From: Burkholderiaceae bacterium
GTDB taxonomy: Bacteria > Pseudomonadota > Gammaproteobacteria > Burkholderiales > Burkholderiaceae_C
Reading direction: 5' to 3'
Assembly (NCBI GenBank): GCA_023150375.1
Contig: JAKLLA010000025.1
Location: 1-50,188 of the forward strand
Length of the DNA: 50,188 bases
The first letter of the stretch is position 1, and every line of letters starts with the position of its first letter. The position numbers and the translations under genes are program-made. Shown here in pieces: positions 29,664 to 50,188 of this stretch. The notes below the pieces were generated by a model, which was given only the letters and a program-made list of their open reading frames with translations, was not told the origin of the DNA and did no database searches.

Positions 29664-32600
29664 TCAGGGCAGGTTCATCAAGGTCCTCAGCGCATCGCGC
29701 AGCTCGCGGTGCGTGAGCGGCCGCGGCGCCTGGCCGCGCGGGCGCAGCAGCGGCATGGCCGGCGAGCTGCGGTCGGCATCCAGGTCGATGCGGTCGTCGC
29801 GCAGCACCTGGCCCCAGGCGTCCAGGGTCGGCAGCAGGCCGATGCGGGCCACCTCCTCGCCAGCCGCCGGGGCCGCGGGGCCGGGAGCCAGCCGCTCGGG
29901 GGCCTGATCCGGGACGGCGTCCAGCCCGACCAGCCAGCGCCACTCGGCTTCGCGCCGCTCGTCCAGGTTCCAGCGCCGCAGCACCTCGCGGCCGGCCTGC
30001 AGCGGGGTCGGCCCGGCCGACAGCGCCGCGGTCAGCCCCGGGTTCAGCAGCGGCGCCAGCGCCAGCTGGAACAGCGCCGCCAGGTCGCCGGCGCGGCCCA
30101 GCGCCGTGCCGCCCAGGTCGGCGCCGAGCGGGTCGACCGCATCGCGCCCGGGCAGCACGTCCAGCGCGTCCTCGGCCGGCGAGAAGCGGCCGGTGGGCGC
30201 GCCCAGTGCGCCGGCGCGGCGGCTGCGCGGCGCCTGGCGCAGCGGATAGGCATCGCCCTGCGCGCGCGGCAGGGCGCGCCAGCGCTGCGCCAGGAGGTCG
30301 TGCAGCGCCCAGCTGGGCTGGTCGTCGCCGTGCGTGGCCAGTCGCAGCGGCCAGGGCAGCGCCGCCGAGGCCGGCTCGACCACCTGCCCCTGCAGCCCGG
30401 GCACCGCCGCCTGCAGGCTGGCGAGCAGCTCGGCCGCGGTCTGCGCCTGCGGCAGCGCCACGGTGGTCACGGCCCCGCCGCCCTGGCGCAGCTCGACCCG
30501 GTCTGCCCAGGGGCGGATCTCCCAGCCCTCGGCCGCGTGCCAGAGCTGCAGCAGTGGACGCATGCCGGCCGGGTAGCGCTGGCCAGCCAGGCCCGCCCCC
30601 TGGGACTCGAGCAGGTGCTCCGGCCAGACCTGGGCACGCACCCGCGGCAGGCCGAGCAGGTCCTGGCCGGCCCAGGCGCCCAGGCCCGGCAGCACATCGA
30701 CCCGGTCGCGCAGCAGCTGGCGCAGCCCGCCGCCAGCCGCGAGTCGCCAGGCCGCCAGCAGCCCGCCGCCCAGCAGCAGCCCGGTGAACAGGCCCCACAG
30801 CGGCCAGAAGGCCGCGTCGCGGCGCAGGTCCGCCCCGCGGATCAGCAGGCAGAACAGCCAGGCCACCGCCAGCCCCATCAGCGGCAGCGCCTGGATCAGG
30901 TGCATCAGCCCGGAGCCGGGCCGCCGCCCGGCGTAGTGCACGATCGAGCGGACCAGGAAGTACAGGTCGGTGGCCACCCAGGGCGTGAACAGCAGCCCCC
31001 AGCGGATGCCGGGCGACGCCGACAGGGTCAGCGCACTGGTCACCGCGAAGACGGTGCGCAGCCCGCCGGCCACGGTGAACTGCACGAAGTCCGCATCGCG
31101 CCGCGGCACGATGGCCCACAGCGCCAGCCCGTAGGCCAGCGGCGCCGGGATGCCGCAGGCCAGCGTGATGTTCGCGACCTGGTACCAGCTCTTCTCGTCG
31201 CTGGCATTGGCCGGGTCGTCCGGGCCCTTCGATTCGTCGACCTGGCGCAGCAGGCGCCCGCCGTGGTCGCCGAAACGCGCCAGCATCACGCCCAGCGCCG
31301 GCGCCAGGAAGACCGGCAGCAGCACCGCGAACCAGGTGCCCAGACCCCAGTTCGACGGCGCGCGGCTGGCCTGCCAGAGCTGCAGCCCCTCGGCCAGCGC
31401 ATCGGCATCGGGCGGACGGTCCTCGGCCGGAGCCTCGGTGGTGGACAGGCGGCGCGCGGCCAGTTCGGGGCCGAGGCTCTCCTGCAGCGCCCGGGCGAAG
31501 GCGGGCAGCAGCGCCGGCGGCAGCGCGTCCGCGCTCGGGAACCAGCCGTCGAAGGCCGGCTGCTCGGCCTGCCCGGCCAGCATCGTGCGGCTCACCCAGG
31601 TTTCGGCGATGGCCCGGTCGACCCCGCCGGAAGGCCCCGGATCGGCCGGACCGCGCAGCGCCGCGGCGCCGCGCAGCAGCGGGCCGATCAGCAGCTCGCC
31701 GGCCACCGCACAGGCCATGCCGGCGCAGAAGGCGCGGATGCGGGCCTGCCCGGTGGCATCGGCCGTGCCGGCCAGGGCGAACTGCGCGGTGCGGCCGACG
31801 ACCGTCAGCGCATCGGCCAGGGTGGCCGACACCGCCTCGTCGGCGCTGCCGCGGCGCAGGGCGCTGCGCATCCAGCCCGGGCGGGCCTCCAGCCAGTCGG
31901 CCCAGTCGGGCAGGTCCAGGCCGATCGCCCCCAGCATCACGAAGCGCGACAGCCCCTCGGCCGCCGCGGCATGGCTCAACGGGTCCGGCCCGGGCAGCGC
32001 GGTGGCCGCGGCCTGCAGCAGGGCATGCAGCCCGCGGTCGACATCGGTCAGGTGGTCGCCCGAGTGCATCCGGATGCGCGAATGCCGCGCCAGCGCCGCC
32101 AGGCGGCGCTGCGCGACGATGGCGGTGGCCAGCGGCAGCGCGGCCGGAATCTCGCGCGGGGGTCCCTGCACGGCCGGCGGGTCGCCCGCCAGCGCGGTGA
32201 CCGTGATCGCGCGCAGGGCGGCGTGGCGCTGCGCGTCGACCAGCGGCTGCACCGCCACCGCCGGGTCCGGGAAGGGGTCCAGCTCGTGGTGCGCCAGCGC
32301 CAGCAGGTACCAGGACGCGCGCGCCGGCAGCTCGGCCGGGCGCGGCAGCAGGTCCGAATGCAGGTCGAAGGCGGCCACCCGCGGCTCGCGCGCATCCAGC
32401 CGGCCGAGCCGGCGCAGGCCCAGCGTGCGCCAGCCGCCGCCGTGCACCGGCAGGCCGCTGCGCAGCGCGGCGGCATGGTCGGCCGGCAGCGCGGGCGGCT
32501 GCCCGCCGACCGCCTCGGCCAGCAGCAGGTGCACGGTGGCGCCGCGGCAGGCCTCCACCCCGGTGTTCTGCAGCTGCACGTAGACCCGGTTGACCACGCC

Positions 32601-35600
32601 GGCCAGGTGAGTGGCCACCGTCGCGCTGCGGTCGGCCAGTGCGGCAAAGCCCACCGCATCGAGCCCCTGCTGCGGCGGGGTCTGGTACGCCCCGCCCAGG
32701 GGCGCGTCCACCACGATGTCGGGGCTGGCGGCCGGCGCCACCGCGGCGCCGGCGGCATCGCGTGCGCCGTAGGCGGCCGGGCGCAGGCCGCGGTCCAGCA
32801 CGGTCTCGCGCAGCAGCAGGCGCACACGCGGCACCGGCACCGGCGGCACCTGGCGTTCGTAGCAGCCGCGCCCGTGGGTGGACACGCGCAGCAGGCCGTT
32901 CGGTGCGAGCTCGAGGTCGACCACCGGCGCGTCGGGCAGCCCCTCGGAGAAAGGCCGCCAGTGCGCACCGCCGTCGGTCGAGCGCCACAGGCCGATGTCG
33001 GCCCCGACGTACAGCCCGCCGGCATCGGCCACGATGGCGTTGTGCTGCACGTCCAGCAGGCCGGTGGCGCCGTTGCCGGAGCGGGCCGACCAGGTGACGC
33101 CGGTCACGTTGCCCGCGCCGTTCAGCGTGACCTGGGCACGCCAGACCCGCCGCGTGCCGGCCGCCGCGCTGCCCCCGCCGACGCTGCCGCCCAGGCAGAC
33201 GTAGAAGCTGCGCGCAGCGGCGTCGGCCGGGTCGCGGCAGATCCCGGTGACCCGCGGCGGCGGCGGTGCCAGCGGGGCGGGCTCGCCCGGCACGGCCGGC
33301 GGCGCAGCGGCCGCCACGCGGGGCCAGACGCTGCCGGAGGCCAGCGACTGCGGCCCGTTCCAGGCCGCCGCCGGAGCGGGCCGCTCGTAGAGGTAGCAGT
33401 GCCCCTGGTCGGTGCCGACGACAATGCGGTCGAAGCTCAGGAAGGCGATCGCGCTGATCAGCTGCCCGCCGGGCAGCCGGTCGGCCGCGCCGTTGCTCGG
33501 CAGCGAGGCCCAGTCGCCGCTGCCGGTCGAGGGGGCGGGCCCGCCGAAGGTGTCGGACAGCCAGAGCCGCTGGCCGCCGAGCAGCACCCGGTTGGCCTGC
33601 GCCGGCTGCGCCGGGTTCAGCGGCGCGCCGACCAGCGGCGGGTAGAAGGCGATGGCGTCACCGCCCAGGGCGGCGAAGACCTTGTCCTGCGGGTGCGGCG
33701 GCATGACGCTGCCGCCGGACTGCAGGCGGTAGACCCGCTCGCGCATGTAGCCCACCAGCACCCGCGGCGCCAGCCCCGCCAGCACGTCGCCCCAGTGCCA
33801 GACCGCCGCGCCCGCATCGCCCTGGAAGACCATGCGCCAGCCCGGCGTGCCCTGGCCGAGCGCGGCGCCGTTGTCCTGCGTGGACAGCAGCAGCAGCGCA
33901 TCCTCGGTCGGGTGGGTGTCGACCCCGTTGCCCTGCAGGGTCTGCAGCCCGCGGTTGCAGGCCCGGAAGGCCGCGCCCGGCTGCTCCCAGGCCTCGCAGC
34001 GGAACACACCCCCGTCGGTGCCAGCCCAGAGCTGGCTGCCGTCGCCGGGGGTGAAGGTCAGGCGGTGCACATCGGCATGGGCGCGCGCGCCGATGTAGCG
34101 GCTCGCCAGCGTCCAGTCGGCCCCGTTGGGCACGAGGCTGCCGACCCAGATCGACGAGAACCAGTTCGCCCCCGGGGTGCCCACGGCCACCACCGCGTCG
34201 CCCATGGCCTGCACCGTGGAACCACCGAGCACGATGCGGTTCACGTCGCGCGGGTCGACCGCCACCGCCAGGTCGTACCAGCCCTGCGTGCCGACCCAGG
34301 CGAGCGTGCCCTGGCCCGGGGTGGCGCTGGCCGGCGTCGGGTCCACCGGCATCGGCGTGATGCGGCCCCAGCGGTCGCTGGCGGCGTCCCAGCGAAAACC
34401 GCTGCCGTCCTGGCGCACCAGGTAGACCACGTCGGGGTCGTCCTCGCGCATGGCCAGGCTGCAGCGCAGCGCCGCGCCCGCCGGCGCCAGCGCGGGCGGG
34501 GCGGGCAGCTGCGAAGGCAGCCAGGCCGGCGCGACCGACGCCGGCCAGCTGGCCGCGCCCAGCGGGCGCAGCAGCGGCGGCGCGCCGGCAGCGGCCTCCG
34601 GATCGTCCGAGCGGAAGCGGAACACCTGCCCGCCGCGCAACGCCACCACCACCGTGGTGACCCCGCCGGCGGCGGCGCAGGCCAGCCCGGTGACATCCGG
34701 AATCTCGCTGGCCGAGGTGGCCTGGCCCGCCCCGTCGACCGTCAGGGCGAACCACAGCCGCCGCCAGTGCCAGCCGCCCACGCGGTCCGGCTCGCGCAGG
34801 AACAGGCCGACATTGGTGGCCGCGAAGGCCCGCTGCGGATCGGCCGGGTCGACCGCCAGCGCCCAGCAGCCGCGCTGCATCAGCAGGCCCGAGGCGGTCA
34901 GCGGCTGGGCCGGCGGCAGCACCGCGGGCGCGACCGGCTTCGGGCCGGCCACGGTGGGCTCGCGCAGCCAGTTGCGCCCGCCGTCCAGCGACACCAGCAG
35001 GCCGATGCCGAAGTAGGCGTCGCCGTTGCCGAAGGGCTCGCCGGTGCCGACGAAGACCCGCTCCGGGTGGTCCGGGTGGATCGCCACCGCCGGACAGGCC
35101 AGGCTGTCGGTGCGCAGCGCCGCCGGGTCGAGGTCGAAGGCCTCCATGCAGGACTGCCAGGAGGCCCCGCCGTCGTCGCTGCGCCAGACGCCGCCGTTGG
35201 CGCTGCCGGCATAGGCGATCTCGCCGTGCCGCGCGATCGCCAGCCCCGGCGTGCGCCCCGCCACCGGCGGGCCGCCCTGCGCCAGTCCGTTCAGCATCGG
35301 CGAGGGCCCGATCGGCACGAAGCGCGGGGGCAGCCGCGGCCCGGCCGCCGCCCCCGGCGCCAGCGCCACCACCGTCAGGTGGCGCAGCGCCACCTGGCGC
35401 AGGCCGTCGGCCACCGCCTCGGCGTCCACCAGGTCGGTGACCAGCGGGTCGTCGGCGTGGTGCAGCGCCACCAGCAGGGTCCAGGCCTCGCTGCCCGCCG
35501 TGGCCGCCAGCACGTCCGGCGCGGGCAGCAGCGCAGACGACAGCGTCAGCGTCGCCACCTGCGGGTGGCCCGGCCAGAGGTCGGACACCGTCGTGTGGCC

Positions 35601-38321: not shown

Positions 38322-38335
38322 GGTCGCGCGCTCCG

Positions 38336-38635
38336 TCAGGGCCCGTCGCCGGGCTCGCCGCCGCCGTCCTCGCCCGGATCGCCGCCGCCCTGCGCATCGG
38401 CGGCGGCCTGCAGGCGCTGGCGGTAGCTGCGCATCAGGTCGGCCAGCGGCGGGGGCAGTTCGGTGGGCTGGGCATGCGGGTCGCCCCCGCCGGCCTCGGT
38501 CAGCTCCTCCTCGACGTCGGCCAGCGGGTCGCGCGGGCGCATCGTGCGGGTGCGCTGGGCCATGAACCAGGCCTGGCGCAGCTGGGCCCCACTGGCTTCG
38601 GCGCCGGGGGCGGCGTCTTCGGGTTCGTCGGGCAT
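38336..38635 (-). CDS. Small acidic protein of the tail-like cluster, unknown
   Basis: A 99-residue protein, strongly acidic and low in complexity. The ends are Gly/Asp/Glu/Pro-rich (GGGDPGEDGGGEPGDGP at the C-terminus). A short conserved-looking core, LRQAWFMAQRTRTMRPRDPL, and a helical LADLMRSYRQRLQAAA suggest a binding peptide flanked by disorder. It starts 2 bp after the collagen-like gene's stop and ends 14 bp before the giant gene, so it is tightly embedded in the operon. It could be a chaperone or adaptor for either neighbour; that is inference from position only. Confidence 0.65.
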   Translation of the reverse strand: MPDEPEDAAPGAEASGAQLRQAWFMAQRTRTMRPRDPLADVEEELTEAGGGDPHAQPTELPPPLADLMRSYRQRLQAAADAQGGGDPGEDGGGEPGDGP

Positions 38636-38637
38636 GG

Positions 38638-40230: not shown

Positions 40231-41909
40231 GGGGCAAGCGTCCGGTAGAAGACGGTGGCGCGGGTCAGCGTGACCTGGCCGCTGCCGTGCAGGCGCAGCT
40301 TCAGGCGCAGCTGCTGGTCGGCGATCTCGCCGCGGGCGGCCGAGGCGGGGCTGGCCGGCGTCAGCCGCACGGTGCCGCTGCTGGGCGTGGGCGTGAACCC
40401 GGGGGCCACCTGGGGCAGCGCGTGGCCGGCCAGCACCGGCACCACGCCCGGGCGCAGGTCGTCGCTGCGCGGCGTGCCCAGCACCCGCAGGCGCCCGGCG
40501 GGCTGCAGCGCTGCGCCGCCGCGGCGCACCGCCACGGCCAGCGGCCGGAACGGCGGGCCGGGCAGGCTGCGGCGCAGGCGGACGAAGTCGGGGTCGGCCT
40601 CCGCCGCGCCCTCGTCGGACGGGCCGGAGGCGGCCGCCCCGGGCGGCTCGGAGAGCGGCCACTCGCAGCCGCCCCGGGTGGCGCTCAGCTCGACCCACCA
40701 GAACGGCGCCTGCGCGCCCGGCTCCAGCCGGACCGGCCGCGCCAGGGCCAGCTCCACCCAGCGCAGCGCCCCGGCGGCCTCGCCGGGCGCCGGCTCCAGC
40801 ACGGCCGGCGTGAAGCGGGCCGCAGGCAGCGGGGTCAGCGGATGCTCGGCATTGCCCTGGTAGAGCACGGCCGCGATCTCCGCGCCGGCAAAGCCGGCCG
40901 GCAGCAGCAGCGGCAGGCGCAGGCCGGTCAGCTCGGCCAGCGGCGCCAGCCAGGCGGCCGGCAGGCGCGCGGCGTAGCTGTGCGCGGGGTCGAGCACCAG
41001 GCGGGCGGCCGGGTTGGTGGCGGGATCGGGCAGCGGCCAGCCCCGCCAGGCCGGCATGCGCCCGCTCACGCCCAGGTCGACCTGCACCACCTCCCAGGTC
41101 GCACTGTCGGCGGGCAGCGGCAGAGAAGCCTCGACCTCCTGCTCGGCCTCGCCGCCGAAGGTCCGCCCGGCCGGCGGCAGCACCACCTCGTGCCGGCGCA
41201 CATAGGTCAGCTCCAGCGTCAGCGCATGCGCACAGGGCGTGCCCGAACGCAGCGTGAGGGTCGGGTTCGCGCCCTGGGCCAGCGCGGCCTGCAGCTCGGC
41301 GGTCAGCGGCACCTGGACCTCGAAGGCCGGCACCGCGCCGCCCGAGGCGCTCAGCGGCGCCGCGCCGGGACGCGACCAGACGCGCTGGCCGCCGATCTCG
41401 AGCAGCAGGTCCTTCGGCGCCCCGGGCAGCAGCAGGGTCAGGTCGCGCGCCACCTCGGCGGCCGGCACCGGGGCGGTGAAGGTCAGCTCCAGCCGCTCGG
41501 TCTGCACCTCGGCGAAGTCGACCCCCGCCTGCGCCAGCTGGGTGGCGCTCAGGCTCATCGCGGTGAAGCTGCTGCCCGCCCAGCGGCGCAGCAGGCTGAG
41601 CCGGCGACCCGTGGGCAGCTGCAGCGAGGCCACCGTGCGCAGCGTGCCGAAGTCGATCACCACCACCGCGCCACCCGCGCCCTGGCGCACCTGGGCGACC
41701 TGGCCGGCCGCGATGCGCCCGGCCTCCTCGACGCGGATCGTCGCCGTGGCCTGGGTGACGATGGCATCGGCCGGCAGCGCCGTCGTGCGGCTGGACTCGA
41801 CCACACCGTGCACGAGCAGGAAGGGCAGGCGCGCAGCCTCCACGCTCAGCCACTGCGACGGCTGCGCCGTGGCCCAGGCGGCGGTCATCGCGTCGACGGC
41901 AGCGATCAC
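40227..41909 (-). CDS. Unknown tail-cluster protein, beta-rich
   Basis: A 560-residue protein with no family I recognise. It appears mostly beta-stranded: segments such as [20 protein letters not shown] and [13 protein letters not shown] alternate with Pro/Ala-rich loops, suggesting several jelly-roll or Ig-like domains. There is no signal peptide or membrane segment. The start is a GTG 13 bp after the upstream stop; an in-frame ATG seven codons later is an alternative. The end overlaps the collagen-like gene by 4 bp. Position between PASTA proteins and the fibre suggests a structural or fibre-connecting component. Confidence 0.72.
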
Positions 41910-41922
41910 GGCAGTCGATCCG

Positions 41923-42432
41923 TCAGACGCCGAAGGCCTTGGCCGCGCCCAGCGCCACCATCACCGCATTCAGGTCGCTGCCGGCGTCGCCGCCGACCGC
42001 CACGCCCTTGGCCTGCAGCGTCGCCAGCGCCTGACCGCGCTCGGCCTCGCTGAGCGTCTGGCTCTCGGCGTACTTCGACACCAGCGCGCTCATGGTGGCG
42101 TCGTTCTTCAGGAAGTCGTCGTAGAGGCTGCCCAGCGGGCGCTCCTGCCAGCCCGTGAACCCCCCCGCGATCGCACCGCCGGGCAGCACCCGGCCGTTGG
42201 TCATCACCAGGTCGACCTTGCTGCCCCGGGCCACCAGGCTGCCCGCGCGCGGGGTCTGGCTCAGCACCTTGGGCGAGCGGTACAGCTGCTGCATGTTCTC
42301 GACGATCTCGGGGCGGACCACCACCTCCGAGACGAAGGCGTTGTCGCGCAGGATCCTGGCGCTGGCCGCGGAGAAGTTCGTCGTCGCCAGGTTCAGGGAC
42401 GCCAGGTTCATCGTCGGCAGGGAGGTGGCCAT
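41923..42432 (-). CDS. PASTA-like tail-cluster protein, short
   Basis: A 169-residue protein. Residues about 50-85 contain a partial PASTA-like unit (VLSQTPRAGSLVARGSKVDL), the same QxPxxG-xxxxG pattern seen twice in the neighbouring gene. The C-terminal part (LSEAERGQALATLQAKGVAV) looks helical with an EF-loop-like or linker character. GGAGG lies 7 nt before the chosen ATG (MATSLPTMN). No export signal, unlike PASTA proteins that bind peptidoglycan as kinases or PBPs. Confidence 0.7.
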   Translation of the reverse strand: MATSLPTMNLASLNLATTNFSAASARILRDNAFVSEVVVRPEIVENMQQLYRSPKVLSQTPRAGSLVARGSKVDLVMTNGRVLPGGAIAGGFTGWQERPLGSLYDDFLKNDATMSALVSKYAESQTLSEAERGQALATLQAKGVAVGGDAGSDLNAVMVALGAAKAFGV

Positions 42433-42496
42433 CGAAGTGCCTCCGGAAGGAAACAAGGGGTGAAGGGGTCTGCGGGCAGGACGGGCGGTCGGCCTC

Positions 42497-43207
42497 TCAG
42501 GTCACCGAGGTGCTGCCGATCTCCAGGCCCACCGCGGCCAGCGCGCGGCTGGCCTCGGCCAGCGTCAGCCCGGCCAGGTTCGGCACCGTGACGATCGAGG
42601 ACTCCATCTCGGCGCTGACGATCAGCCGCACCGGGGCACCGGTGCTGCCCACCCAGCTGCCCGCCGGCGGCTGCTGCGCCAGCACCACCGCGTTCTGGTA
42701 CTGCGCGGGCGGGTTGGTCTTGGGAATGGAGTCGCCGGCCACGTTCAGGATGGCGTCGACGGCGATGGCCGGGCCGGCCAGCGCGGCCAGCGCCTGCGTC
42801 AGCGGCCGGCCGAACAGATCGGGCATGCGCGACTGGTTCGCGCTCAGCGTGACCGCCACCGGCGCGGCCACCGGCACGGTGATCGTGACGCTGGCATCGG
42901 CGCAGCCCGCCGCACTGACGTGCAGCTGCCAGTCCCCGGCGGTCAGCCCGGCGAGCTGGTGCGCGCTCTGGCCGGGGAAGGGCGCGATCGCCGCGATCGC
43001 CCGCCCGCCGGTGACGGGCAGCGCGACGACGCGGGCGTCGCTGCGCGCCCCGCCGGCGTCGCTCACGCCGACGGACACCGCGTGGCCGCCGAGCGCGTCG
43101 ACCGCGTCGAACAGCGTGCCGATCGCGTCGACGAGGGCATTCCAGGCTTGGGCGGTGACGGGGCGTCCAGGATCGGCGTGGACGAGGGCCGGCTTGGTGA
43201 GAGGCAT
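42497..43207 (-). CDS. PASTA-domain tail-cluster protein
   Basis: A 236-residue cytoplasmic-type protein. The N-terminus has DPGRPVTAQAWNALVDAIG, a pattern that looks like a baseplate-attachment segment and has a cousin in the N-terminus of the collagen-like protein. A beta-rich domain (about 45-125) follows. Then come one full PASTA unit (MPDLFGRPLTQALAALAG to QQPPAGSWVG, about 128-198) and a final half-unit VPNLAGLTLAEASRAL. PASTA units are known to bind peptidoglycan stem peptides or beta-lactams, so target-cell-wall contact is a reasonable hypothesis. AGGA precedes the ATG. Confidence 0.8.
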   Translation of the reverse strand: MPLTKPALVHADPGRPVTAQAWNALVDAIGTLFDAVDALGGHAVSVGVSDAGGARSDARVVALPVTGGRAIAAIAPFPGQSAHQLAGLTAGDWQLHVSAAGCADASVTITVPVAAPVAVTLSANQSRMPDLFGRPLTQALAALAGPAIAVDAILNVAGDSIPKTNPPAQYQNAVVLAQQPPAGSWVGSTGAPVRLIVSAEMESSIVTVPNLAGLTLAEASRALAAVGLEIGSTSVT

Positions 43208-43289
43208 GGGGCGGTCCTGGTGCGAGGGTCGGTGAAGGGGGCGGCGAAAGGGGCCGTGAAAGGGGGCGGGCGCGGGTTCGTCGGGAGGT

Positions 43290-44897
43290 TCAGGCCGGCG
43301 GGGCAGGCGCCGGCCACAGCCGGGTGCCGTGCACGATCAGGCCCTCGGGCTCGACGCTGCCGGCCTCGCGCAGCACGCCGTGGCCCAGGCTCCAGCGGTC
43401 GTCGGCGTACTCGACCGCGAGGTAGACACCGGCCGGGCGGAAGCGCTCCAGCGCCTGGCGGATGCGCTCGCGCACCTCGAGGCGGCCGCTCGGCGCGTCG
43501 CTGCCCGGCGCATCGTCGAGCGTGGCAAAGCGCCGCGGCAGCCACAGCGTGCAGGTGTAGGGCTGGCGCTCGCGCCAGGCAAAGCCGATGTCGGCGGCCG
43601 GTGCCGCCGCGGCATCGGCCCAGACCGCGCCGTCGAAGCGACCGGCACACCAGATCGGCAGGGCCGCGACGGCCTGCGGCGCCGCGGGGACCTCACCCGC
43701 GTCCCCGGCGTCGGCGGCGCCCTGCGCCTCGCTGCCGAAGGTGGCCTCGCGCACGAAGAAGCACAGCCGGGTGCTGCCCACCGCCAGGGTGATCGGCGGC
43801 ACCCGCCCGCCGGCATGCGGCAGCAGCCCGTCGGCGGCCGAGGCCACCGGGCGGCAGACCCCGAAGGTCGCCACCCGGTCGCCGTGGGCCTGCGGATCGT
43901 CCGCATCGCCGAAGACGAAGTCCAGCCCCGGCACGGCGGCGGCGGCGTCGGCGAACACGCCGCCGTCGATCGAGAAGGCGCGTGCGCCGGCCTCGACGCC
44001 GTCCAGCTCGACCAGGCCGGAGGCGCGCCAGCGCAGCGTCTGGCCCGCGGCCAGCCGGTCGGCATAGACCAGCGCATGGCCGCGGCCGACGTCGACCAGC
44101 ATCGGCCAGAAGCAGCGCTCGTCGCGCGCGACCAGGATCACGTCGGTGGCCACCGGGCCGAAGCCCAGGCGCTGCAGGGTGAAGCGCTCGCGGTGTGCCC
44201 GCGGGGCGGGCTCGAGATCGACGGCCTCCTCGGGGTTCTCCTCCAGCGCCAGCCAGTCGGCCCGCGGTGCCGGCGCCGCCTCGGGCCGCAGCCGGTCGCG
44301 GGCCTCGAGCAGGTGCCAGAAGTCGTCGCCGCGGCGGTGCAGCGCCCCGGGCTCGAGCTGCAGCAGCGCCGCAGCGGCGTGCAGCAGCGCGAGCGGGCTG
44401 CCGTTGCCGCCGCGATGCACCGCGATCAGCTCGACCACGAGGCGGCGCTGCGCCTGCAGCCAGGCGGCATGGCCGGTGAGCGCCAGCAGGGCGCCGGCCA
44501 TGCGCGCGGCGATCTGGTCGTCGGTCTCGCCGCCTTCGGCCGGCCAGAGCGCGCCGGCCAGCGCCACCGCATCGGGCAGCACGGCCAGCGCGGTCGCCCG
44601 CGTGGCCGGGTCGGCCAACGCCTCGGCCAGCGGGCCCAGTGCGGCCAGGCGGCGCAGGGTGACGTCGAACAGCTCCTCGCGCAGGCCGTGCAGGCCGGCC
44701 AGGCGGCGCAGGTCGACCTGCTCCTGCGCCTCGCCGAGGCGGTGCGCCCGCCGCACCCGGCCGAGATCGGCGGTGAGCCGGTCCAGGTGACCGGCCAGCC
44801 CGTGCACCACGGCGCCGAACAGGCTGCCCGGCGCGTCCAGCGCCAGGTGACGCGGGAAGCGCGACAGCACGGTGCGGGCGCGGGGGCTGAGGGTCAT
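43290..44897 (-). CDS. Large tail/baseplate protein, gpI/Afp12-position, family unclear
   Basis: A 535-residue protein directly after the gpJ-like gene, the slot taken by gpI in phages and by Afp12-type proteins in injection systems. The first 200 residues are helical (DRLTADLGRVRRAHRLGEAQ, RRLAGLHGLREELF), resembling the wedge-binding part of tail protein I. The middle is beta-rich, and the end RIRQALERFRPAGVYLAVEY echoes the IxxxLxxxxPAGV pattern seen in gpI-like proteins. The ATG giving MTLSPRAR is chosen. It is linked to the gpJ gene through a 16-codon bridging ORF. Confidence 0.72.
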   Translation of the reverse strand: MTLSPRARTVLSRFPRHLALDAPGSLFGAVVHGLAGHLDRLTADLGRVRRAHRLGEAQEQVDLRRLAGLHGLREELFDVTLRRLAALGPLAEALADPATRATALAVLPDAVALAGALWPAEGGETDDQIAARMAGALLALTGHAAWLQAQRRLVVELIAVHRGGNGSPLALLHAAAALLQLEPGALHRRGDDFWHLLEARDRLRPEAAPAPRADWLALEENPEEAVDLEPAPRAHRERFTLQRLGFGPVATDVILVARDERCFWPMLVDVGRGHALVYADRLAAGQTLRWRASGLVELDGVEAGARAFSIDGGVFADAAAAVPGLDFVFGDADDPQAHGDRVATFGVCRPVASAADGLLPHAGGRVPPITLAVGSTRLCFFVREATFGSEAQGAADAGDAGEVPAAPQAVAALPIWCAGRFDGAVWADAAAAPAADIGFAWRERQPYTCTLWLPRRFATLDDAPGSDAPSGRLEVRERIRQALERFRPAGVYLAVEYADDRWSLGHGVLREAGSVEPEGLIVHGTRLWPAPAPPA

Positions 44898-44944
44898 GGT
44901 CGGGTTCCGGGCGGCTGCGGGTCGGGTTCGGGTCGGTCCCTCAC
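44894..44944 (-). CDS. Bridging mini-ORF, 16 codons, gpJ-gpI junction
   Basis: A GTG start overlaps the gpJ stop (GTGA) and the TGA stop overlaps the next gene's ATG (ATGA). The predicted peptide is RDRPEPDPQPPGTRP after the initiator: proline-rich and unlikely to fold. Its most likely value is translational coupling rather than the peptide itself. Confidence 0.3.
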   Translation of the reverse strand: MRDRPEPDPQPPGTRP

Positions 44945-46761
44945 CCGGCCAGACTGGCTTCAGTGGTCGCCAGGCTGCGGATCCAGGGCTGCTGGCTGGC
45001 GTCGATGCCCAGCGTGAGGTTGCGCTCGACGGTCTTGAGGCCCTCGTCCATGTACTCGGCGACATACTGGACTTCGGCCACGGCGTAGTCCTCCTGGTCC
45101 GGCAGGGCGCCGCGCAGCCCTTCGGGCGTGACCTCGGTCAGCGTGCCCAGCAGGCTGCGCAGACGCGTCAGCAGGTCGCCGCGCACGCGGGCCAGCTCGG
45201 CCCCCGCCTCGCGGGCGGCGTACAGGCCGCGGCGTTCGACCTGCACGGTGAGGTCCAGCGCCACCAGGGCGCCGCGCAGCCGGATGTCGACACCGTCGGC
45301 CGCCAGGCGGGCGCGCCGGGTGGGTGGCGTCATCAGGTTGGCACGCCCCCGGCGCTCGGCATCGGCCATGCCGGCACGCCAGGGGAAGAGCGTGAAGGTC
45401 ACGTCCTGCACGCCGTCGACCGCCATCAGCGCCGCGACCAGGCGGTTGTAGACCACCGCCTCGCCGATGCCCAGGGCATCCACCGCCGCCGCCAGCGCGC
45501 CCCGCACCGCCTGCGCCAGGGCCTGCTTGCCGGCCATGTCGAGCTGCGCGCTGGCCGGCGTGACCACGATGTCCAGCCCGAGGTCGTACCAGACGTCGTC
45601 GCCCACCGTCGGCGCCTCCGGGGCGGCCTCGGCGGGATCCATGCCCGCACCCGGGCCCAGGCCGATGCCGGCCGCCTCGGGCACCAGCAGGTTGTGCACC
45701 ACCCGCACGCCGGCCGGCCGGACCCGGTGGATGGCCTCGAGCGCCGCACGGGCATGGGCCGCATCGAGGTCGGCCGCGATGGTCACGCGGACCGTGCCGG
45801 GCGCCGAGACCGGGTCCTCGTCGACCCGCACGTCCTGCGCGCGGATGCCGGCGATGCCGGTGAGCGCCCCGACGATCGCCCCGGGGGTGGCGGCCCCGCC
45901 GGTCTCGAGGGCGCGGGCGACGCGGCGGCGCAGCGCCTCGTCGTCCTCGGCCTGGCCGGCGAAGCCCAGGTCCTGCGGGTTGGTCGCCGCGGCGATGCCG
46001 AGGATGGGCCGGTGGATCACGGTCAGCGTGCCGGCGCGCGCGGCGCCGGCCGGGCCGTCCACCTGCGCGGCCACCGGCACCGCCACCGACAGCGCGCCGG
46101 CGCGCAGCGTGCGCGCCGCGGTGGTCTGCACCGTCACCGGCGGCACTTCCGACGAGCTGACCAGCGCGGCGGCCGGGATCACGATGTCCGCCGGGGCCGG
46201 CGTGGCGCGGCTGAAGACCACCTCGCCGGTGGCCGCCGCCCGGCTGCGCCGGGGCACGCCGACCAGCGCAGCCAGCTGGTCCAGGTCGCGCCCGGCCGCC
46301 GTGTCGAGGAAGGCGGCCTGGTAGACCGTCTCGAGCTGCCGCGACAGCACCGCGTACTCGCGCGCGAAGGACTCGGCCAGCGTGCGCACGATCGAGCCGG
46401 GATTGCGGTCGGTCAGCTGCGGCGCGGGCGCCAGGCCGGGACGGGCCTCGTAGCTGACCCAGAAGCGGCTGCCCAGGTCCGGCAGCGCCACGCCGGGCAG
46501 CGGCAGGCCGGCCGCATCGATGCGCCAGGCCAGCACGCCATCGGGGCCCACCTCCAGATCGGTGCCGGGCAGGAAGCGGCGGTAGGCCCCCTGGTGCAGG
46601 CCGTGCAGCCGCACCGAGGCCGGCAGCGCGTCGGCCCCCAGCCCGAGGCGGAAGGGGGCATGTTCGGGCAGGTAGACATGGTCCTCGCGCACCACGCCAC
46701 CGGTCAGCGCGGCGAGCAGGTCGTCGACGAAGACGCCGTAGGGTTCGGCGGCGTAGCTCAT
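44941..46761 (-). CDS. Baseplate J/gp6-like wedge protein
   Basis: A 606-residue baseplate_J-family protein, the wedge that forms the ring around the hub in contractile tails (Afp11/gp6/gpJ). Family features are LDQLAALVGVPRRSRAAATG, the beta-rich central block (about 200-260), and the GxAEDDEALRRRVARAL helix near 285 with TPGAIVGAL after it. The C-terminal 150 residues continue with further alpha-beta repeats (DGVQDVTFTLF). Length is between phage gpJ (about 300) and Afp11 (over 800). GGAGG stands 9 nt before the ATG, inside the 33-codon bridging ORF. Confidence 0.9.
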   Translation of the reverse strand: MSYAAEPYGVFVDDLLAALTGGVVREDHVYLPEHAPFRLGLGADALPASVRLHGLHQGAYRRFLPGTDLEVGPDGVLAWRIDAAGLPLPGVALPDLGSRFWVSYEARPGLAPAPQLTDRNPGSIVRTLAESFAREYAVLSRQLETVYQAAFLDTAAGRDLDQLAALVGVPRRSRAAATGEVVFSRATPAPADIVIPAAALVSSSEVPPVTVQTTAARTLRAGALSVAVPVAAQVDGPAGAARAGTLTVIHRPILGIAAATNPQDLGFAGQAEDDEALRRRVARALETGGAATPGAIVGALTGIAGIRAQDVRVDEDPVSAPGTVRVTIAADLDAAHARAALEAIHRVRPAGVRVVHNLLVPEAAGIGLGPGAGMDPAEAAPEAPTVGDDVWYDLGLDIVVTPASAQLDMAGKQALAQAVRGALAAAVDALGIGEAVVYNRLVAALMAVDGVQDVTFTLFPWRAGMADAERRGRANLMTPPTRRARLAADGVDIRLRGALVALDLTVQVERRGLYAAREAGAELARVRGDLLTRLRSLLGTLTEVTPEGLRGALPDQEDYAVAEVQYVAEYMDEGLKTVERNLTLGIDASQQPWIRSLATTEASLAG

Positions 46762-46859
46762 GGCAGGGCCCTCCGGTCTCGGCCCGATCCCCGGCGCTCG
46801 TGGGCGGGCCGGCCTGCGGGCGCGCCCAGGCAGCTGCGCCCGGTCTCGCAGCGGTTCAT
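46758..46859 (-). CDS. Bridging mini-ORF, 33 codons, gp25-gpJ junction
   Basis: ATG overlaps the gp25 stop by 4 nt (ATGA) and its TGA overlaps the gpJ start by 4 nt. The peptide begins MNRCETGRSCLG and is very basic, with two cysteines. The Shine-Dalgarno of gpJ lies inside it. Either a tiny real protein or, more likely, a relay that keeps ribosomes on the message across a 94-bp gap. Confidence 0.35.
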   Translation of the reverse strand: MNRCETGRSCLGAPAGRPAHERRGSGRDRRALP

Positions 46860-47329
46860 GCGCCGGTCTCCAGGCTGAAGGGGACCACCAGGTTGCGCGG
46901 CACGTCCTGCCCGATCAGGCGCAGCGTCAGGACGATGCGCACCGTGCCGCGCTGCGCCGCATCGGCACCGACCGTGCAGCGCTCGATGCGCTCGATGCGC
47001 GGCTCGTGGCTCAGGCACTCCAGCACGTCGCGCTTGATCAGGTGGCGGGTGCGCTCGGTGTTGGGCTCCCCGATGCGCTCGTGGTGGCGCGAGCCGTAGG
47101 TCGGGTGGCCCAGCGCGGCCAGTTCGCCGCGACGCGTCTTCAGGCGGTTGACCAGCAGCTGGTCGGCAGCAGCCAGGTCGCGGGCCACCGCAATGTCGCG
47201 CAGGCCGGGGCGCTGCGCCACCGCCAGGTCGGCGTCCTCCCAGCCGCCGGCCGGACCCGGCCAGTGCAGCGCCAGGTCGCGGCCGAGGCGGCGCATCAGC
47301 ACGTCGAGGTCGGCACGGGGAGCAGGCAT
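46856..47329 (-). CDS. gp25/gpW-like baseplate wedge protein
   Basis: A 157-residue protein of the GPW/gp25 family, a lysozyme-like fold without enzymatic role that initiates sheath assembly on the baseplate (Afp9 equivalent). Seen motifs: GRDLALHWPG, then RDIAVARDLAAADQLLVNRL, GELAALGHPTYGSR near 70-83, and the C-terminal HEPRIERIERCTV with VRIVLTLRLIG. It lies between PAAR and gpJ genes as in other contractile systems. The ATG has only a weak Shine-Dalgarno, and PAAR ends 84 bp upstream. Confidence 0.93.
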   Translation of the reverse strand: MPAPRADLDVLMRRLGRDLALHWPGPAGGWEDADLAVAQRPGLRDIAVARDLAAADQLLVNRLKTRRGELAALGHPTYGSRHHERIGEPNTERTRHLIKRDVLECLSHEPRIERIERCTVGADAAQRGTVRIVLTLRLIGQDVPRNLVVPFSLETGA

Positions 47330-47413
47330 GGCGGTGTCGTCCAGGTCGGGGTCGGCAAAGGGCGTGACAGGGCGCGCGGGATCGGGTCGGCGTGCGGGCG
47401 TCTCGACAGGCGC

Positions 47414-47749
47414 TCAGGGTGGGTGGTCGTCGCGCAGCCAGGGCGCGGCGCTGGGGCCGAGGATGGTCAGCACGCCGCTGCCGGCCGGAATGCGGTCGCC
47501 CAGGCGCACCAGCCCCTGGCCGGCCACACCGACGCCCGTGCTCACGCCGCTGGCCGGGATCGGCAGCACGTAGGGCACGCCGGAGACGGAATTCACCAGC
47601 TGGCAGAGGCTGCCCGCGGTGGCCAGCGGCAGGCCGCCGGCCAGCGCCGCGGCCTGGGGGATCGCGACGATCACGCCGCTGTCGGGCGCACCGGCGGCTC
47701 CCGGGGAGAGCATCACCGCGCAGCCGATCGAGACGGGGCTTCCAGGCAT
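47414..47749 (-). CDS. PAAR-like spike-tip protein
   Basis: A 111-residue Gly-rich protein in the place of the PAAR tip (Afp10 position). PAAR proteins cap the spike with a sharp metal-bound cone. The PAAR triplets are not exact here. The pattern SIGCAVMLSPGAAGAPDSGV, the short beta turns, and the absence of a signal peptide still fit. Metal-binding His/Cys are few (Cys in IGCAV and SLCQL; one HPP at the end), so metal binding is doubtful. GGAGA precedes the ATG; the gpV gene ends 13 bp upstream. Confidence 0.75.
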   Translation of the reverse strand: MPGSPVSIGCAVMLSPGAAGAPDSGVIVAIPQAAALAGGLPLATAGSLCQLVNSVSGVPYVLPIPASGVSTGVGVAGQGLVRLGDRIPAGSGVLTILGPSAAPWLRDDHPP

Positions 47750-47762
47750 GGGTTTCTCCGGG

Positions 47763-48407
47763 CTAGGCGGGGCTGAACGAGGTGGTGCCGGCGATCGACA
47801 CGCTGCCGCCCTTCAGGGTGGCCGAGCCATCGCCCTGCACGGTGACGCTGGGGGCCTTCAGGGTGGCCCCGCTGCCGCCCTCGAGGGTCAGCGCACCGGC
47901 GGCCTTGAGCGTCAGGTCGCCGCCGGCCTCGAGGGTCACCGCGCCGTCGGCCGCGATCGACAGGGTGCTGCGGCCCATGCGGATCTCCAGGCTGCCGTCC
48001 TTGAGCGTCAGCGTGCGCCCGCCGGGCAGCTCGATGTGCAGGCGGCGCAGCCCCTCGTCGGCCTCGTCGGGCACCCGGTAGACCAGCTCGGCCGGCCGGG
48101 CATCGGGGGGCGCATGGTCCGCATCGTGCAACGTGCCCAGCAGCACCGCCTGGTCGATGTCGCCGCCGAGGAAGCCGACCACCACCAGATCGCCCTCGCG
48201 CGGCAGCGCCGACCAGCCCAGCCGGCCGACGCTCACCGGCACCTGCTGCAGCTCCAGCGCCGAGGCATTCAGCCGCACGTTGGCCGACAGGTGGTGACGC
48301 CCGTCGCCGCCGTCGTTGCTGAAGACCTGGGTCACCACGCCCAGCTCCAGGCCGCGCCGGCCGGCCAGTTCGTCGCGCACCAGCGCGCGCAGGGCAGGCA
48401 CGATCAT
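47763..48407 (-). CDS. gpV/VgrG-C-like spike protein
   Basis: A 214-residue baseplate assembly protein V. The N-terminal OB-fold region is MIVPALRALVRDEL to GFLGGDIDQAVLLG (about 1-95, with the gpV-type WSALPREGDLVVVGFLGG). The C-terminal part is a beta-helix with short repeats of T-L-x-x-G (GDLTLKAAGALTLEGG), the triple-stranded spike of the trimer. GGAGG precedes the ATG. In Afp8 this is fused to the hub; here hub and spike are separate genes, as in Mu-type phages. Confidence 0.92.
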   Translation of the reverse strand: MIVPALRALVRDELAGRRGLELGVVTQVFSNDGGDGRHHLSANVRLNASALELQQVPVSVGRLGWSALPREGDLVVVGFLGGDIDQAVLLGTLHDADHAPPDARPAELVYRVPDEADEGLRRLHIELPGGRTLTLKDGSLEIRMGRSTLSIAADGAVTLEAGGDLTLKAAGALTLEGGSGATLKAPSVTVQGDGSATLKGGSVSIAGTTSFSPA

Positions 48408-48445
48408 GAGGGGGCCCTCCCCCCGGTCCGCCCGGTGGCGTTCAT
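48404..48445 (-). CDS. Bridging mini-ORF, 13 codons, gpD-gpV junction
   Basis: ATG overlaps the gpD stop (ATGA) and TGA overlaps the gpV start (ATGA). The peptide is MNATGRTGGRAPS, with the gpV Shine-Dalgarno inside it. It fills the 34-bp gap exactly and is the clearest case of a reinitiation bridge. Confidence 0.35.
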   Translation of the reverse strand: MNATGRTGGRAPS

Positions 48446-49398
48446 GACACCCCCTCGAAGTCCAGCCAGGTGGCGAAGCCCCGGGCATCGAGCACCTGCG
48501 TCACCGCGGTCAGGCGGGCGTCGACATCGCCGTCGGGCAGGTCCGCCAGCGTGACCCGGTCTCCGGGGCGCAGCCCCGGCTGCCCCCAGCAGAGCGCCTC
48601 GCCCGCCACCCGGCGGCGCTGCGCCGCGTCGGCCAGCGCCTGGGCCGTCTGGCGGGCGGCATTGCGGTCGCGCAGCGCGCCGGGCACCCAGGCCTCGCGC
48701 TCGGGGCCCTCGCCCACCGGCGCGGCCAGCGGCAGGAACCAGTGATCGGCCCCGGCCTCGCTGCCCGCACCCGCGGCACCGACCGGGGCCGGCGCAGGCC
48801 CGGCCTCGTGCGCGCTGCAGCGCCAGGCGATCAGTTCGGCGCCGCGCCGCAGGGCCGCCTGCGCCGGCCCGCGACCGGGCGGGCGCACATGCAGGGCACC
48901 GTCGGCCGCGCTGGCCACCTCGCAGCCGGCCAGCCGGGCCAGGCGCAACAGATGGTCCCAGCGGCTGCACCGGTCGTCGGCATGGAAGACGCCCACCTCC
49001 AGGCTGGCGCCGACCACCCCCGCCGCCACGCCGGCATCGGCCAGCAGGTCGTCGACGATCTGCCGGGCCCCCTGTCCCACCCAGACCCGCGCCGCGCGCT
49101 GCCGCGACAGCGCCCAGGACGGCGCCAGGCACTCGACGCGCGCGCCGCCGCGGTGCCGCTCGACCGCCACCGTGCGGCCGCGGAAGACCGGCTGCGGCGC
49201 GTCGTCGAAGCCCAGCGACAGCGCCACCTGGCCGCCCGGTGCCGGCACGGTCGGTGCCAGCGGGTGCAGCTCCAGCACGCAGCGGTCGTGCGCCGGGCCC
49301 AGGCCCAGCGTGACCTCGGCCCGCAGCAGCGCGGCCTCGGGCGCGCGCAGGCGCTGCCCGTCCAGCGAGATTTCGGCCACCGGGGTGAAGCGGCTCAT
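48442..49398 (-). CDS. gpD/gp27-like baseplate hub protein
   Basis: A 318-residue late-control D family protein (VgrG N-terminal-like hub). It shows the tandem barrel pattern: DRCVLELHPL and QVALSLGFDDAPQPVFRGRT near 40-80, then WVGQGARQIVDDLLADAG and RWDHLLRLARLAGCEVASAA in the helical part, and QPGLRPGDRVTLADL near 275-290. As trimer it sits on the inner tube end and holds the spike. GGAGAAGG precedes the ATG, which overlaps the upstream gene by 4 bp. Confidence 0.9.
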   Translation of the reverse strand: MSRFTPVAEISLDGQRLRAPEAALLRAEVTLGLGPAHDRCVLELHPLAPTVPAPGGQVALSLGFDDAPQPVFRGRTVAVERHRGGARVECLAPSWALSRQRAARVWVGQGARQIVDDLLADAGVAAGVVGASLEVGVFHADDRCSRWDHLLRLARLAGCEVASAADGALHVRPPGRGPAQAALRRGAELIAWRCSAHEAGPAPAPVGAAGAGSEAGADHWFLPLAAPVGEGPEREAWVPGALRDRNAARQTAQALADAAQRRRVAGEALCWGQPGLRPGDRVTLADLPDGDVDARLTAVTQVLDARGFATWLDFEGVS

Positions 49399-50188
49399 CC
49401 GCCTTCTCCCGGGTCGATGCCGTGGCGGCGCAGCTCGGCTTGCAGCACGCGCTCGAGCCGACGGCGAAAGAGCAGCTCGTCGCCACCGGCCGCCTCCCCA
49501 TCGGCCGGGTCGTCGTGGCGGGGCCGCGCCGCCGCCTCGACGGCCATGTGTCGCCCGGCCGCCTCGATCGGGGTTGGGGGGGGCGACAGTGACGCCGCCC
49601 CTCGCAGCCCGGGCGGATCGGCGAAGCGGTCGAGTGGGGAAGGGCCCACCGCGTCTCCCACCGCGTTGCCCACTGCAGCGGAGGCCAGCGGCGCCCCGGC
49701 GGACGCCAGTGGCTGGCCCGGCCCGGCCTGGGCCCCCGGCCAGCGCTGCAGCAGTTCGACCAGCGCCGAGGGGCGGCCGCCGGGCGGTGGCGCTGCGGGC
49801 CAGGCCACCGGCGCAGCGGCGGGCGGCGCCTCCCCAGGCAGGAGCGGGGCGCGCCGCGCGGTGCGTCCAGCGGGCTCGGACGTCGGGTCGGCCAGGGCGG
49901 TGGCTGCAGCGGGCGGCGGGCGGCGGGTGGGATCCAGCGCCGCCGCCAGTGCCGCCAGATCCCGCGCGCCCGGGGCGCCCCCTGCCGCTGCGGGCCTCGG
50001 GGCGACCGGGTCCGGCGCGGCCGACGAGCCCCCCGGGGTTGCCCCCGACACCGGGTGCGGCGCCTGCCCGGCCAGGCGCCGCAGCAGCGCGGTCGGCAGC
50101 GCGGCAGGCGCGTCCGGCCCCGCCAGCCGGGCGACCAGCGTCGGCAGGGCCTGCGGCGGCAGGCGCGGACCGTCGGGCGCACGGGACG
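49395..50188 (-). CDS. Pro/Ala-rich tail-cluster protein, 5' end outside window
   Basis: The frame is open to the window edge; a GTG at 50051 exists, but coding-looking sequence continues above it (LPTLVARLAG, LPTALLRRLAGQAP), so the true start is probably outside. At least 264 residues are visible. Most is low-complexity Pro/Ala/Gly; only the last 35 residues look structured: DELLFRRRLERVLQAELRRH, then GIDPGEGG, an amphipathic helix. In many injection-system operons a LysM or small adaptor gene holds this slot before the hub; no LysM motif is visible here. The long disordered region and helical tail may suit a protein that threads or recruits cargo, but this is speculation. Confidence 0.6.
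   Translation of the reverse strand, partial: SRAPDGPRLPPQALPTLVARLAGPDAPAALPTALLRRLAGQAPHPVSGATPGGSSAAPDPVAPRPAAAGGAPGARDLAALAAALDPTRRPPPAAATALADPTSEPAGRTARRAPLLPGEAPPAAAPVAWPAAPPPGGRPSALVELLQRWPGAQAGPGQPLASAGAPLASAAVGNAVGDAVGPSPLDRFADPPGLRGAASLSPPPTPIEAAGRHMAVEAAARPRHDDPADGEAAGGDELLFRRRLERVLQAELRRHGIDPGEGG

What the first reader, a model, noticed from the sequence alone, without database searches (positions are those of the whole stretch)
29664..50188. Contractile injection-system locus with an unusual distal half (PASTA, collagen-like fibre, giant propeller/membrane protein)
Hub (gpD), spike (gpV), PAAR-like tip, gp25 and gpJ wedges are in the order of Afp/PVC-like extracellular injection systems. 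Known systems then carry Afp12/Afp13-type genes. Here instead are two PASTA-bearing proteins, an unknown beta-rich protein, a 69-triplet collagen-like fibre, an acidic small protein and a 2885-residue propeller/membrane protein, all in one run. The combination suggests a device with its own way of meeting a target: cell-wall-binding PASTA, long flexible fibre, propeller receptor. No lysis, capsid or DNA-packaging gene is seen in the window.
Basis: partly seen in the sequence, partly recalled or inferred. Interest (0 to 1): 0.85.

Follow-up and report, generated by a model that had tools for sequence, protein, structure and literature searches.

The report
Phage-tail-like injector with membrane module
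A bacterium carries a complete set of genes for a spring-loaded, phage-tail-like needle of a little-known kind, whose cell-contact half (collagen-like fibre, PASTA proteins, propeller and a membrane protein built on a worn-out phospholipase) recurs in bacteria of several phyla and may show how such needles dock on membranes.

Summary
The window is one whole contig, cut inside the locus. The upstream half (DNA_circ-like gene, 1078-aa probable tape measure, sheath, tube) lies at the end of another contig of the same genome. No capsid, terminase, lysis or AAA+ gene was found in the locus, and its outer neighbours are chromosomal. Of 24 related loci, 12 share this gene set (type A, three phyla) and 12 are a sister kind (type B). 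Seven type-A genomes carry the full set on one contig. The giant protein is a fusion of two genes that are separate in other genomes: a BNR propeller and a membrane protein with about six hydrophobic segments and a zinc-phospholipase-C-like front. The metal-binding residues are complete in 3 of 11 aligned copies and lost in the window. The membrane protein occurs in 12 of 12 type-A and 0 of 12 type-B genomes. It is a contractile injection system, but it misses six of nine listed eCIS core domains and scores below the cut-off for one more. My reading: a sub-lineage with PASTA and collagen fibres that engages a membrane through the propeller and pseudo-phospholipase. The parts list is well supported; docking is inferred.

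The parts
49395..50186 (-). End of a Pro/Ala-rich gene, start cut off by the contig end; counterpart of r36 in G012 by position and by its C-terminal end as read by eye
   Evidence: Open at the contig end; no family match; not matched by the r36 profile
48442..49398 (-). Baseplate hub, gpD-like
   Evidence: Phage_GPD 6.3e-06, below cut-off; phrog_52 1.3e-06; family found in 24 of 24 loci
47763..48407 (-). Spike, gpV-like
   Evidence: PF04717 24.1 bits, cut-off 23.8; 24 of 24 loci
47414..47749 (-). Tip protein at the PAAR position
   Evidence: No family match; 70% identical in G012; 24 of 24 loci, being the search seed
46856..47329 (-). Baseplate wedge gp25
   Evidence: PF04965 29.8 bits, cut-off 27.2; phrog_975 2.7e-13
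44941..46761 (-). Baseplate wedge gpJ
   Evidence: PF04865 4.2e-15; phrog_6 3e-40
43290..44897 (-). Second wedge protein at the gpI/Afp12 position
   Evidence: No Pfam match, PHROG best 0.054; 41% identical in G012; family in 22 of 24 loci
42497..43207 (-). PASTA1 protein: N-terminal stretch, Ig-like stretch, PASTA domains
   Evidence: PF03793 41.4 bits; profile A6 hits solved PknB PASTA chains
41923..42432 (-). PASTA2 protein
   Evidence: PF03793 22.7 bits, cut-off 23.2; aligned with 7 relatives
40227..41888 (-). 'Beta' protein of unknown fold, shared with type B
   Evidence: No Pfam match; family in 15 of 24 loci
38638..40230 (-). Collagen-like fibre (530 aa)
   Evidence: PF01391 104.9 bits; relatives aligned
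39085..39705 (-). The 69 Gly-X-Y triplets of the fibre
   Evidence: Triplet count
38336..38635 (-). Small acidic protein (99 aa)
   Evidence: 41% identity over 69 residues to its counterpart in G399
29664..38321 (-). Giant propeller/membrane fusion protein (2885 aa)
   Evidence: Homologous fusions in G399, G402 and G400
32235..38321 (-). Two propeller modules of the giant protein (residues 1-2029)
   Evidence: BNR and Sortilin-Vps10 matches below cut-off; homologous to the separate propeller gene of G012
29664..32234 (-). Membrane part of the giant protein (residues 2030-2885), with degenerate phospholipase C-like front
   Evidence: Profile match to residues 2068-2808; metal-site residues lost; hydropathy peaks

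Best explanation
This is a complete chromosomal contractile injection system of a distinct sub-lineage. SHOWN by sequence: sheath, hub, spike, gp25 and gpJ, a weakly matching tube, conserved tip and second-wedge genes and a probable tape measure, followed by two PASTA proteins, a collagen fibre, BNR propeller modules and a protein with about six hydrophobic segments whose relatives have a zinc-phospholipase-C-like front; in the window the last two are one protein and the metal-binding residues are lost. INFERRED: the particle is built in the cytoplasm. PASTA and collagen proteins sit on the baseplate as short and long fibres. The propeller joined to the membrane protein docks or triggers the particle at a membrane, most likely the producer's own, as proposed for CisA in Streptomyces and for the haloarchaeal membrane protein. 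The phospholipase fold was reused to hold the membrane, and catalysis is dispensable. On contact the sheath contracts and drives the tipped tube across. No separate effector is evident.
For: Upstream half found in the same genome: sheath profile 674 bits at C40:174750, with DNA_circ-like gene, tape, r40, tube and r37 beside it; sheath PF17482 38.8 bits and phrog_279 8.6e-49. The full set is on one contig in 7 genomes. Membrane protein in 12 of 12 type-A and 0 of 12 type-B genomes; PASTA1 at 160 bits or more in 11 of 12 and 0 of 12. The five-gene baseplate tree separates the two types. Propeller and membrane genes are fused or adjacent in 9 of the 12 type-A genomes. Zn_dep_PLPC over cut-off in one relative and just under in two; metal-site residues complete in 3 of 11 while the membrane part persists. 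Papers, passages seen: CIS-linked membrane proteins proposed to act as anchors in Streptomyces and haloarchaea.
Against: Three carriers keep a complete metal site, so catalysis may matter there. In the window copy alone only three or four segments pass a hydropathy threshold, one of them inside the phospholipase-like part. Propeller and membrane genes are not adjacent in G404, G405 and G412. The two contigs of the window genome share no overlapping letters, so their junction is not proven.
Confidence: 0.5

Rival explanations
1. A conventional released eCIS: particles leave the cell on lysis, and the PASTA, collagen, propeller and membrane proteins are all carried on the particle as parts that bind or perturb a target cell.
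For: Fibre genes follow the wedge genes, where eCIS fibres usually lie (section read); collagen shafts with propeller lectins are described for eCIS fibres of the eBAP3 class (section read); no evident signal peptides (by eye).
Against: No lysis gene, no AAA+ loader and no DUF4157 protein found in the locus genes scanned. A protein with several hydrophobic segments is an unlikely free particle part, yet it is in 12 of 12 type-A genomes.
Confidence: 0.3
2. The membrane protein is the injected effector, a phospholipase that damages the target membrane.
For: Zn_dep_PLPC 36.0 bits in the Paraglaciecola copy; complete metal-site residues in G404, G405 and G412.
Against: The site is incomplete in 8 of 11 aligned copies, including the window, although the rest of the protein is kept; in the window, G399, G402 and G400 it is fused to a large propeller.
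Confidence: 0.1
3. A decayed prophage or an R-type tailocin.
For: The sheath's best PHROG family is a phage sheath; wedge proteins match phage structures.
Against: Chromosomal neighbours on both sides; no capsid, terminase or lysis family among the locus genes scanned; the same set in three phyla; no type-A match in three viral-contig scans.
Confidence: 0.06

Closest known systems
Extracellular contractile injection systems (Afp, PVC, AlgoCIS; eCIStem loci; eBAP3 fibre class)
   Same: Order of hub, spike, tip, gp25, gpJ, second wedge, fibres; GPW_gp25 and Baseplate_J domains; collagen shafts are known in eBAP3 fibres (section read).
   Different: No Phage_sheath_1, Phage_T4_gp19, PAAR_motif, DUF4255, AAA or DUF4157 match in the locus genes scanned. 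Carries PASTA proteins and a membrane protein; 'PASTA' has 0 occurrences in the main text of the fibre catalogue. No solved eCIS sheath other than the haloarchaeal one is hit at E<=0.01.
Haloarchaeal CIS working in a T6SS mode (Halogeometricum)
   Same: Its sheath (PDB 9EZM) is the best solved match to the type-A sheath, 2.3e-05; its locus is linked to a membrane protein with six predicted helices (passage).
   Different: No homology between the membrane proteins was tested. The passages seen report no tape measure, plug or crown homologue there, and 'collagen' and 'propeller' do not occur in the text.
Streptomyces CIS with CisA
   Same: A conserved membrane protein encoded in the CIS cluster, needed for contraction and function (passages).
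   Different: CisA is described as having one transmembrane segment and a C-terminal domain like solute-binding domains; here about six segments and a phospholipase C-like front.
Type-B sister loci found here (Roseobacter, Yoonia, Oscillatoria, Phormidesmis, Chloroflexi, Acidobacteria and others)
   Same: Homologous hub, spike, tip, gp25, gpJ, second wedge; in several also tube, sheath, r37, DNA_circ-like and 'beta' proteins.
   Different: Second wedge 1419-1672 aa in 8 of 10 loci where seen (one 896 aa, one cut by the contig end); no membrane protein in 12 of 12 genomes; no strong PASTA1.
Zinc-dependent phospholipase C family (PF00882)
   Same: Front domain of the membrane protein in three relatives.
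   Different: Followed by a multi-segment membrane part; metal-site residues lost in the window; the window copy gives no Pfam match.

Membership tests
Contractile injection system (broad) | Sheath, tube, spike and wedge genes together | tested here: met
   Sheath PF17482 38.8 bits and phrog_279; spike PF04717; gp25 and gpJ over cut-off; tube only weak (PF18906 18.6, cut-off 27)
eCIS (core domains as listed in PMC8213781, passage seen) | GPW_gp25 and Baseplate_J | tested here: met
   29.8 bits (cut-off 27.2) and 56.2 bits (cut-off 21.1)
eCIS (core domains as listed in PMC8213781, passage seen) | Phage_GPD | tested here: inconclusive
   26.0 bits, below cut-off 30.1
eCIS (core domains as listed in PMC8213781, passage seen) | Phage_sheath_1 (PF04984) | tested here: not met
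   0 matches in the own genome; the sheath found later matches only PF17482 and, below cut-off, PF22671
eCIS (core domains as listed in PMC8213781, passage seen) | Phage_T4_gp19 tube | tested here: not met
   Tube matches only Phage_tube_2, weakly
eCIS (core domains as listed in PMC8213781, passage seen) | PAAR_motif tip | tested here: not met
   Tip: 0 families at E<=0.1
eCIS (core domains as listed in PMC8213781, passage seen) | DUF4255 terminator | tested here: not met
   r40 (window genome and L014): 0 families
eCIS (core domains as listed in PMC8213781, passage seen) | AAA ATPase | tested here: not met
   None among the 13 window genes and the C40 genes c26-c31; no Walker A pattern in the window run or the G012 locus. 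c32, cut by the contig end, was not scanned; the rest of the genome was not searched
eCIS (core domains as listed in PMC8213781, passage seen) | DUF4157 | tested here: not met
   None among the same genes
eCIS fibre class eBAP3 (PMC12923769, sections read) | About 200-aa N-terminal shoulder domain of eBAP3 | not testable with these tools
   The published profiles are in supplements not held. The fibre's N-terminus gives no Pfam match below 0.05 and no relevant solved structure
Canonical T6SS | TssJLM membrane complex and ClpV in the locus | tested here: not met
   No such family among the locus genes scanned; elsewhere in the genome not searched
Prophage | Capsid, terminase and lysis genes | tested here: not met
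   None among the locus genes scanned; neighbours chromosomal
PASTA proteins | PF03793 over cut-off | tested here: met
   PASTA1 41.4 bits; PASTA2 22.7, just under the 23.2 cut-off
Zinc-dependent phospholipase C (PF00882) | Profile match and complete metal site in the window copy | tested here: not met
   No Pfam match; metal-site residues lost. Met in relatives: L013 over cut-off, L014 and L021 just under

The most novel reading that the evidence does not exclude
A separate class of membrane-docked contractile injection machine, spread across phyla, in which a zinc phospholipase C was turned into a multi-segment membrane anchor, lost its catalysis in most carriers, and was joined to a propeller that recruits or triggers the particle.
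Probability: 0.35. Interest if true: 0.78.

Novelty: new variant of a known kind. Interest (0 to 1): 0.6.

Why it matters
How injection machines other than the canonical T6SS find and hold a membrane is an open question; the anchors that I met in papers are CisA, a haloarchaeal membrane protein and the thylakoid connectors of Anabaena. Here a membrane protein and a propeller travel with one baseplate lineage in all 12 genomes examined, so the anchor idea becomes directly testable by gene removal and imaging. The system also misses several marker domains used in eCIS surveys, so loci like it may be under-counted.

Tried and rejected
Tried without result: Phage_sheath_1 in the own genome (none; a lineage profile then found the sheath). 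Viral contigs with the tip (33 stretches, 0 relatives), the membrane protein (93 stretches, 0) and the sheath (24 stretches, 1: L099). L099 has the type-B gene order and none of my type-A-specific families in the 12.9 of 19.4 kb held. Annotated phages: gpJ in 23 records, nearly all haloarchaeal viruses, at most about a third of the query; sheath in 4 records, 46% of the query at most. Plasmids: giant protein in 5 records, none over 47%; sheath in 1, 33%. Solved structures for tip, DNA_circ-like protein, 'beta', membrane protein, propeller and fibre anchor gave nothing useful. No promoter- or terminator-like site in 29400-38700.

Rejected: prophage or tailocin; AAA+-loaded eCIS; 'one giant novel protein' (it is a fusion of two conserved genes). 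An active toxin is not excluded for the three intact-site carriers. By eye the fibre's start recalls TssK (recalled pattern); Pfam and PDB do not support it, so it is not claimed.

Limits: types A and B were named from gene content near the tip; the membrane-protein and PASTA1 counts were made afterwards over whole genomes. The tree is midpoint-rooted and shows a split, not polarity; gp25 is missing for one locus and gpJ for two. After self-training gave poor gene calls in G403 and G399, ten stretches were re-called with the window's codon model; in one of them (L009) that model missed gpV, tip and gp25, which one search had found. The metal-site alignment holds 11 copies (G407 left out, its front being on a separate short contig), the hydropathy alignment 11 (G399 left out, cut by the contig end).
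Full report
WHAT WAS CHECKED. The window is the whole of contig C31 (50,188 b) of a 4.63-Mb genome in 43 contigs. From 29,664 to the right end 13 genes run on the minus strand with gaps of -4 to 94 bp. Pfam, NCBIfam and PHROG scans support hub, spike, gp25, gpJ, PASTA, collagen and BNR propeller. The tip, the second wedge and the 'beta' protein match no family and are named by position and conservation. The collagen run has exactly 69 triplets.

THE MISSING HALF. Phage_sheath_1 finds nothing in the genome, but a profile from seven relatives (A4) finds a sheath at 674 bits on contig C40 at 174,750, near that contig's end at 177,671. Around it, on one strand, lie a DNA_circ-like gene (c26; named from its type-B relative, which matches PF07157), a 1078-aa protein that is probably the tape measure (c27), r40 (c28), sheath (c29), tube (c30, weak PF18906), r37 (c31) and the start of a further gene (c32) cut by the contig end. 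The window's contig begins with the end of a Pro/Ala-rich gene just before gpD. The two contig ends thus very probably face each other, though they share no overlapping letters. Outer neighbours are chromosomal: FecCD-type ABC transporter genes and a subtilase on one side; a CHASE-GGDEF-EAL protein, a UvrD helicase and a class II tRNA synthetase on the other.

RELATIVES. A same-genus genome, G012, has the whole locus on one contig. A scan of one genome for each of 84,980 species with the tip protein gave 22 loci. Profile assignment of genes in these plus the window and G012 (24 loci) splits them into two kinds. Twelve are type A: the window, G012, L008-L016 and L021, with record titles naming Rubrivivax, Burkholderiales, Burkholderiaceae, Paraglaciecola, Rhodospira, Neoroseomonas, Ilumatobacter, Acidimicrobiaceae and Gemmatimonadetes. 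Twelve are type B: L017-L020 and L022-L029. For type A further stretches were fetched. Seven genomes (G012, G401, G403, G404, G405, G406, G412) have all of these families on one contig: DNA_circ-like, tape, membrane protein, r40, sheath, tube, r37, gpD, gpV, tip, gp25, gpJ, second wedge, PASTA1, PASTA2, beta, collagen fibre, propeller. The Pro/Ala-rich r36 gene is found by profile in five of the seven and only by position in G405, G406 and the window. The other four type-A genomes (G399, G400, G402, G407) are fragmented and show parts.

ORDER. The run from sheath to fibre is the same in the seven full loci. The tape, membrane and propeller genes move: tape and membrane protein lie before r40 in six (with the propeller next to them in G012, G401 and G403, and after the fibre in G404, G405 and G412), and all three lie after the fibre in G406. 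In the window genome the tape is before r40 and the propeller-membrane fusion after the fibre.

THE GIANT PROTEIN. Residues 1-2029 are two propeller modules (BNR and Vps10 matches, below cut-off) and the rest is homologous to a separate gene in relatives. Propeller and membrane part share one frame in the window, G399, G402 and one contig of G400 (another G400 contig has them as two adjacent genes); they are adjacent genes in G012, G401, G403, G406 and G407, and apart in G404, G405 and G412. In whole-genome searches the membrane protein occurs in 12 of 12 type-A genomes and 0 of 12 type-B genomes. PASTA1 scores 160 bits or more in 11 of 12 type-A genomes (all but G407); no type-B genome exceeds 26 bits. 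A tree of gpD, gpV, tip, gp25 and gpJ separates the types (support 1.0 for A, 0.98 for B), puts the window with L008, L011, L009 and L015, and puts G012 with L010 and L012. The window is 48% identical to G012 but 76% to L008, which suggests horizontal movement.

THE PHOSPHOLIPASE FRONT. Pfam reports Zn_dep_PLPC at 36.0 bits (cut-off 26.8) in the Paraglaciecola copy, 25.3 in Neoroseomonas and 23.3 in Rhodospira (both below), and no family in the window's part. Over 11 aligned copies the His/Asp set typical of the metal site (pattern recalled) is complete in these three, partly kept in G401 and G403, and largely or wholly lost in six, the window and G012 among them. Hydropathy averaged over 11 copies has six peaks between window residues ~2342 and ~2515, one of them weak, and weaker ones near 2205 and 2748; in the window copy alone three or four segments pass a threshold. 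A C-terminal motif W-x-L-D-x-R-R-x-x-E-W-R is present in 7 of 11 copies, the window included; G401, G403, G402 and the truncated G400 copy lack an exact match. The membrane part persists where the active site does not. This is the main argument for an anchor over an enzyme.

HOW IT PROBABLY WORKS. The propeller, fibre, PASTA, beta and tape proteins start without an evident signal peptide (N-termini read by eye), as expected of parts assembled in the cytoplasm. Collagen and PASTA genes follow the wedge genes, where eCIS fibres usually lie. In Streptomyces and haloarchaea, CIS-linked membrane proteins are proposed to bring the particle to the producer's membrane (passages). I infer the same role for propeller plus membrane protein. 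A released particle whose distal proteins all act on a target remains possible.

AGAINST MY READING. No structure could be predicted. Docking is not shown. Three carriers keep an apparently complete metal site. The eBAP3 fibre class of a 2026 catalogue already includes collagen shafts with propeller lectins, so the fibre may belong to a known class; 'PASTA' has no occurrence in that paper's main text.

FREQUENCY AND PRINT. Type A is rare in the samples. PASTA1: 19 of 399 relatives at E<=1e-3, but only the window genome and G012 above 300 bits; the other 17 are below 29 bits. Sheath: 23 of 369 class members at E<=1e-3, only the window genome at full strength; G731 (321 bits) and G680 (246 bits) were not followed up. 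Membrane protein: 2 of 398 phylum members, the second at 18 bits. Eight paper searches listed no paper whose title or abstract start describes this gene set. I saw passages of seven papers, and of one of them (PMC12923769) also the abstract and five sections. Subscription papers, preprints and supplements were not available, so an earlier listing in dbeCIS or eCIStem cannot be excluded.

VERDICT. A real and very probably complete contractile injection system, a new variant of a known kind. It misses six of nine listed eCIS core domains, shows no phage head or lysis genes, and carries a conserved membrane module of phospholipase ancestry that in the window is part of a 2885-residue propeller protein.

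Noticed in passing
window 22604-23794 (+): A separate 396-aa BNR-repeat protein (BNR 31.5 bits, cut-off 27; Sortilin-Vps10 just under) lies in the same contig outside the locus.
   Followed up: no
window 5369-18963 (-): By eye (names from no call) a surface-polysaccharide cluster: sugar transferase, aminotransferases, flippase-like and acetyltransferase-like genes.
   Followed up: no
L017-L020, L022-L029: A sister injection-system family (type B) with a giant second wedge of 1419-1672 aa in 8 of 10 loci where seen, in Roseobacter, cyanobacteria, Chloroflexi and others.
   Followed up: partly
L099 9092-11260 (+): In an IMG/VR contig with the type-B order, a 722-aa protein with an RHS-repeat match (76.4 bits, cut-off 22) lies between the probable tape measure and the hub.
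   Followed up: no
L010 2520-3476 and L012 2565-3560: An extra gene of 318 or 331 aa between the propeller and r40; the L010 copy matches PQQ_2 just over cut-off.
   Followed up: no
L019 and L020: Two genes on the other strand between tip and gp25 in L019; an 810-aa gene between gpV and tip in L020.
   Followed up: no
window genome and G012: Two same-genus genomes carry type-A loci of different sub-branches (48% identity over the baseplate genes), which suggests separate acquisition.
   Followed up: partly
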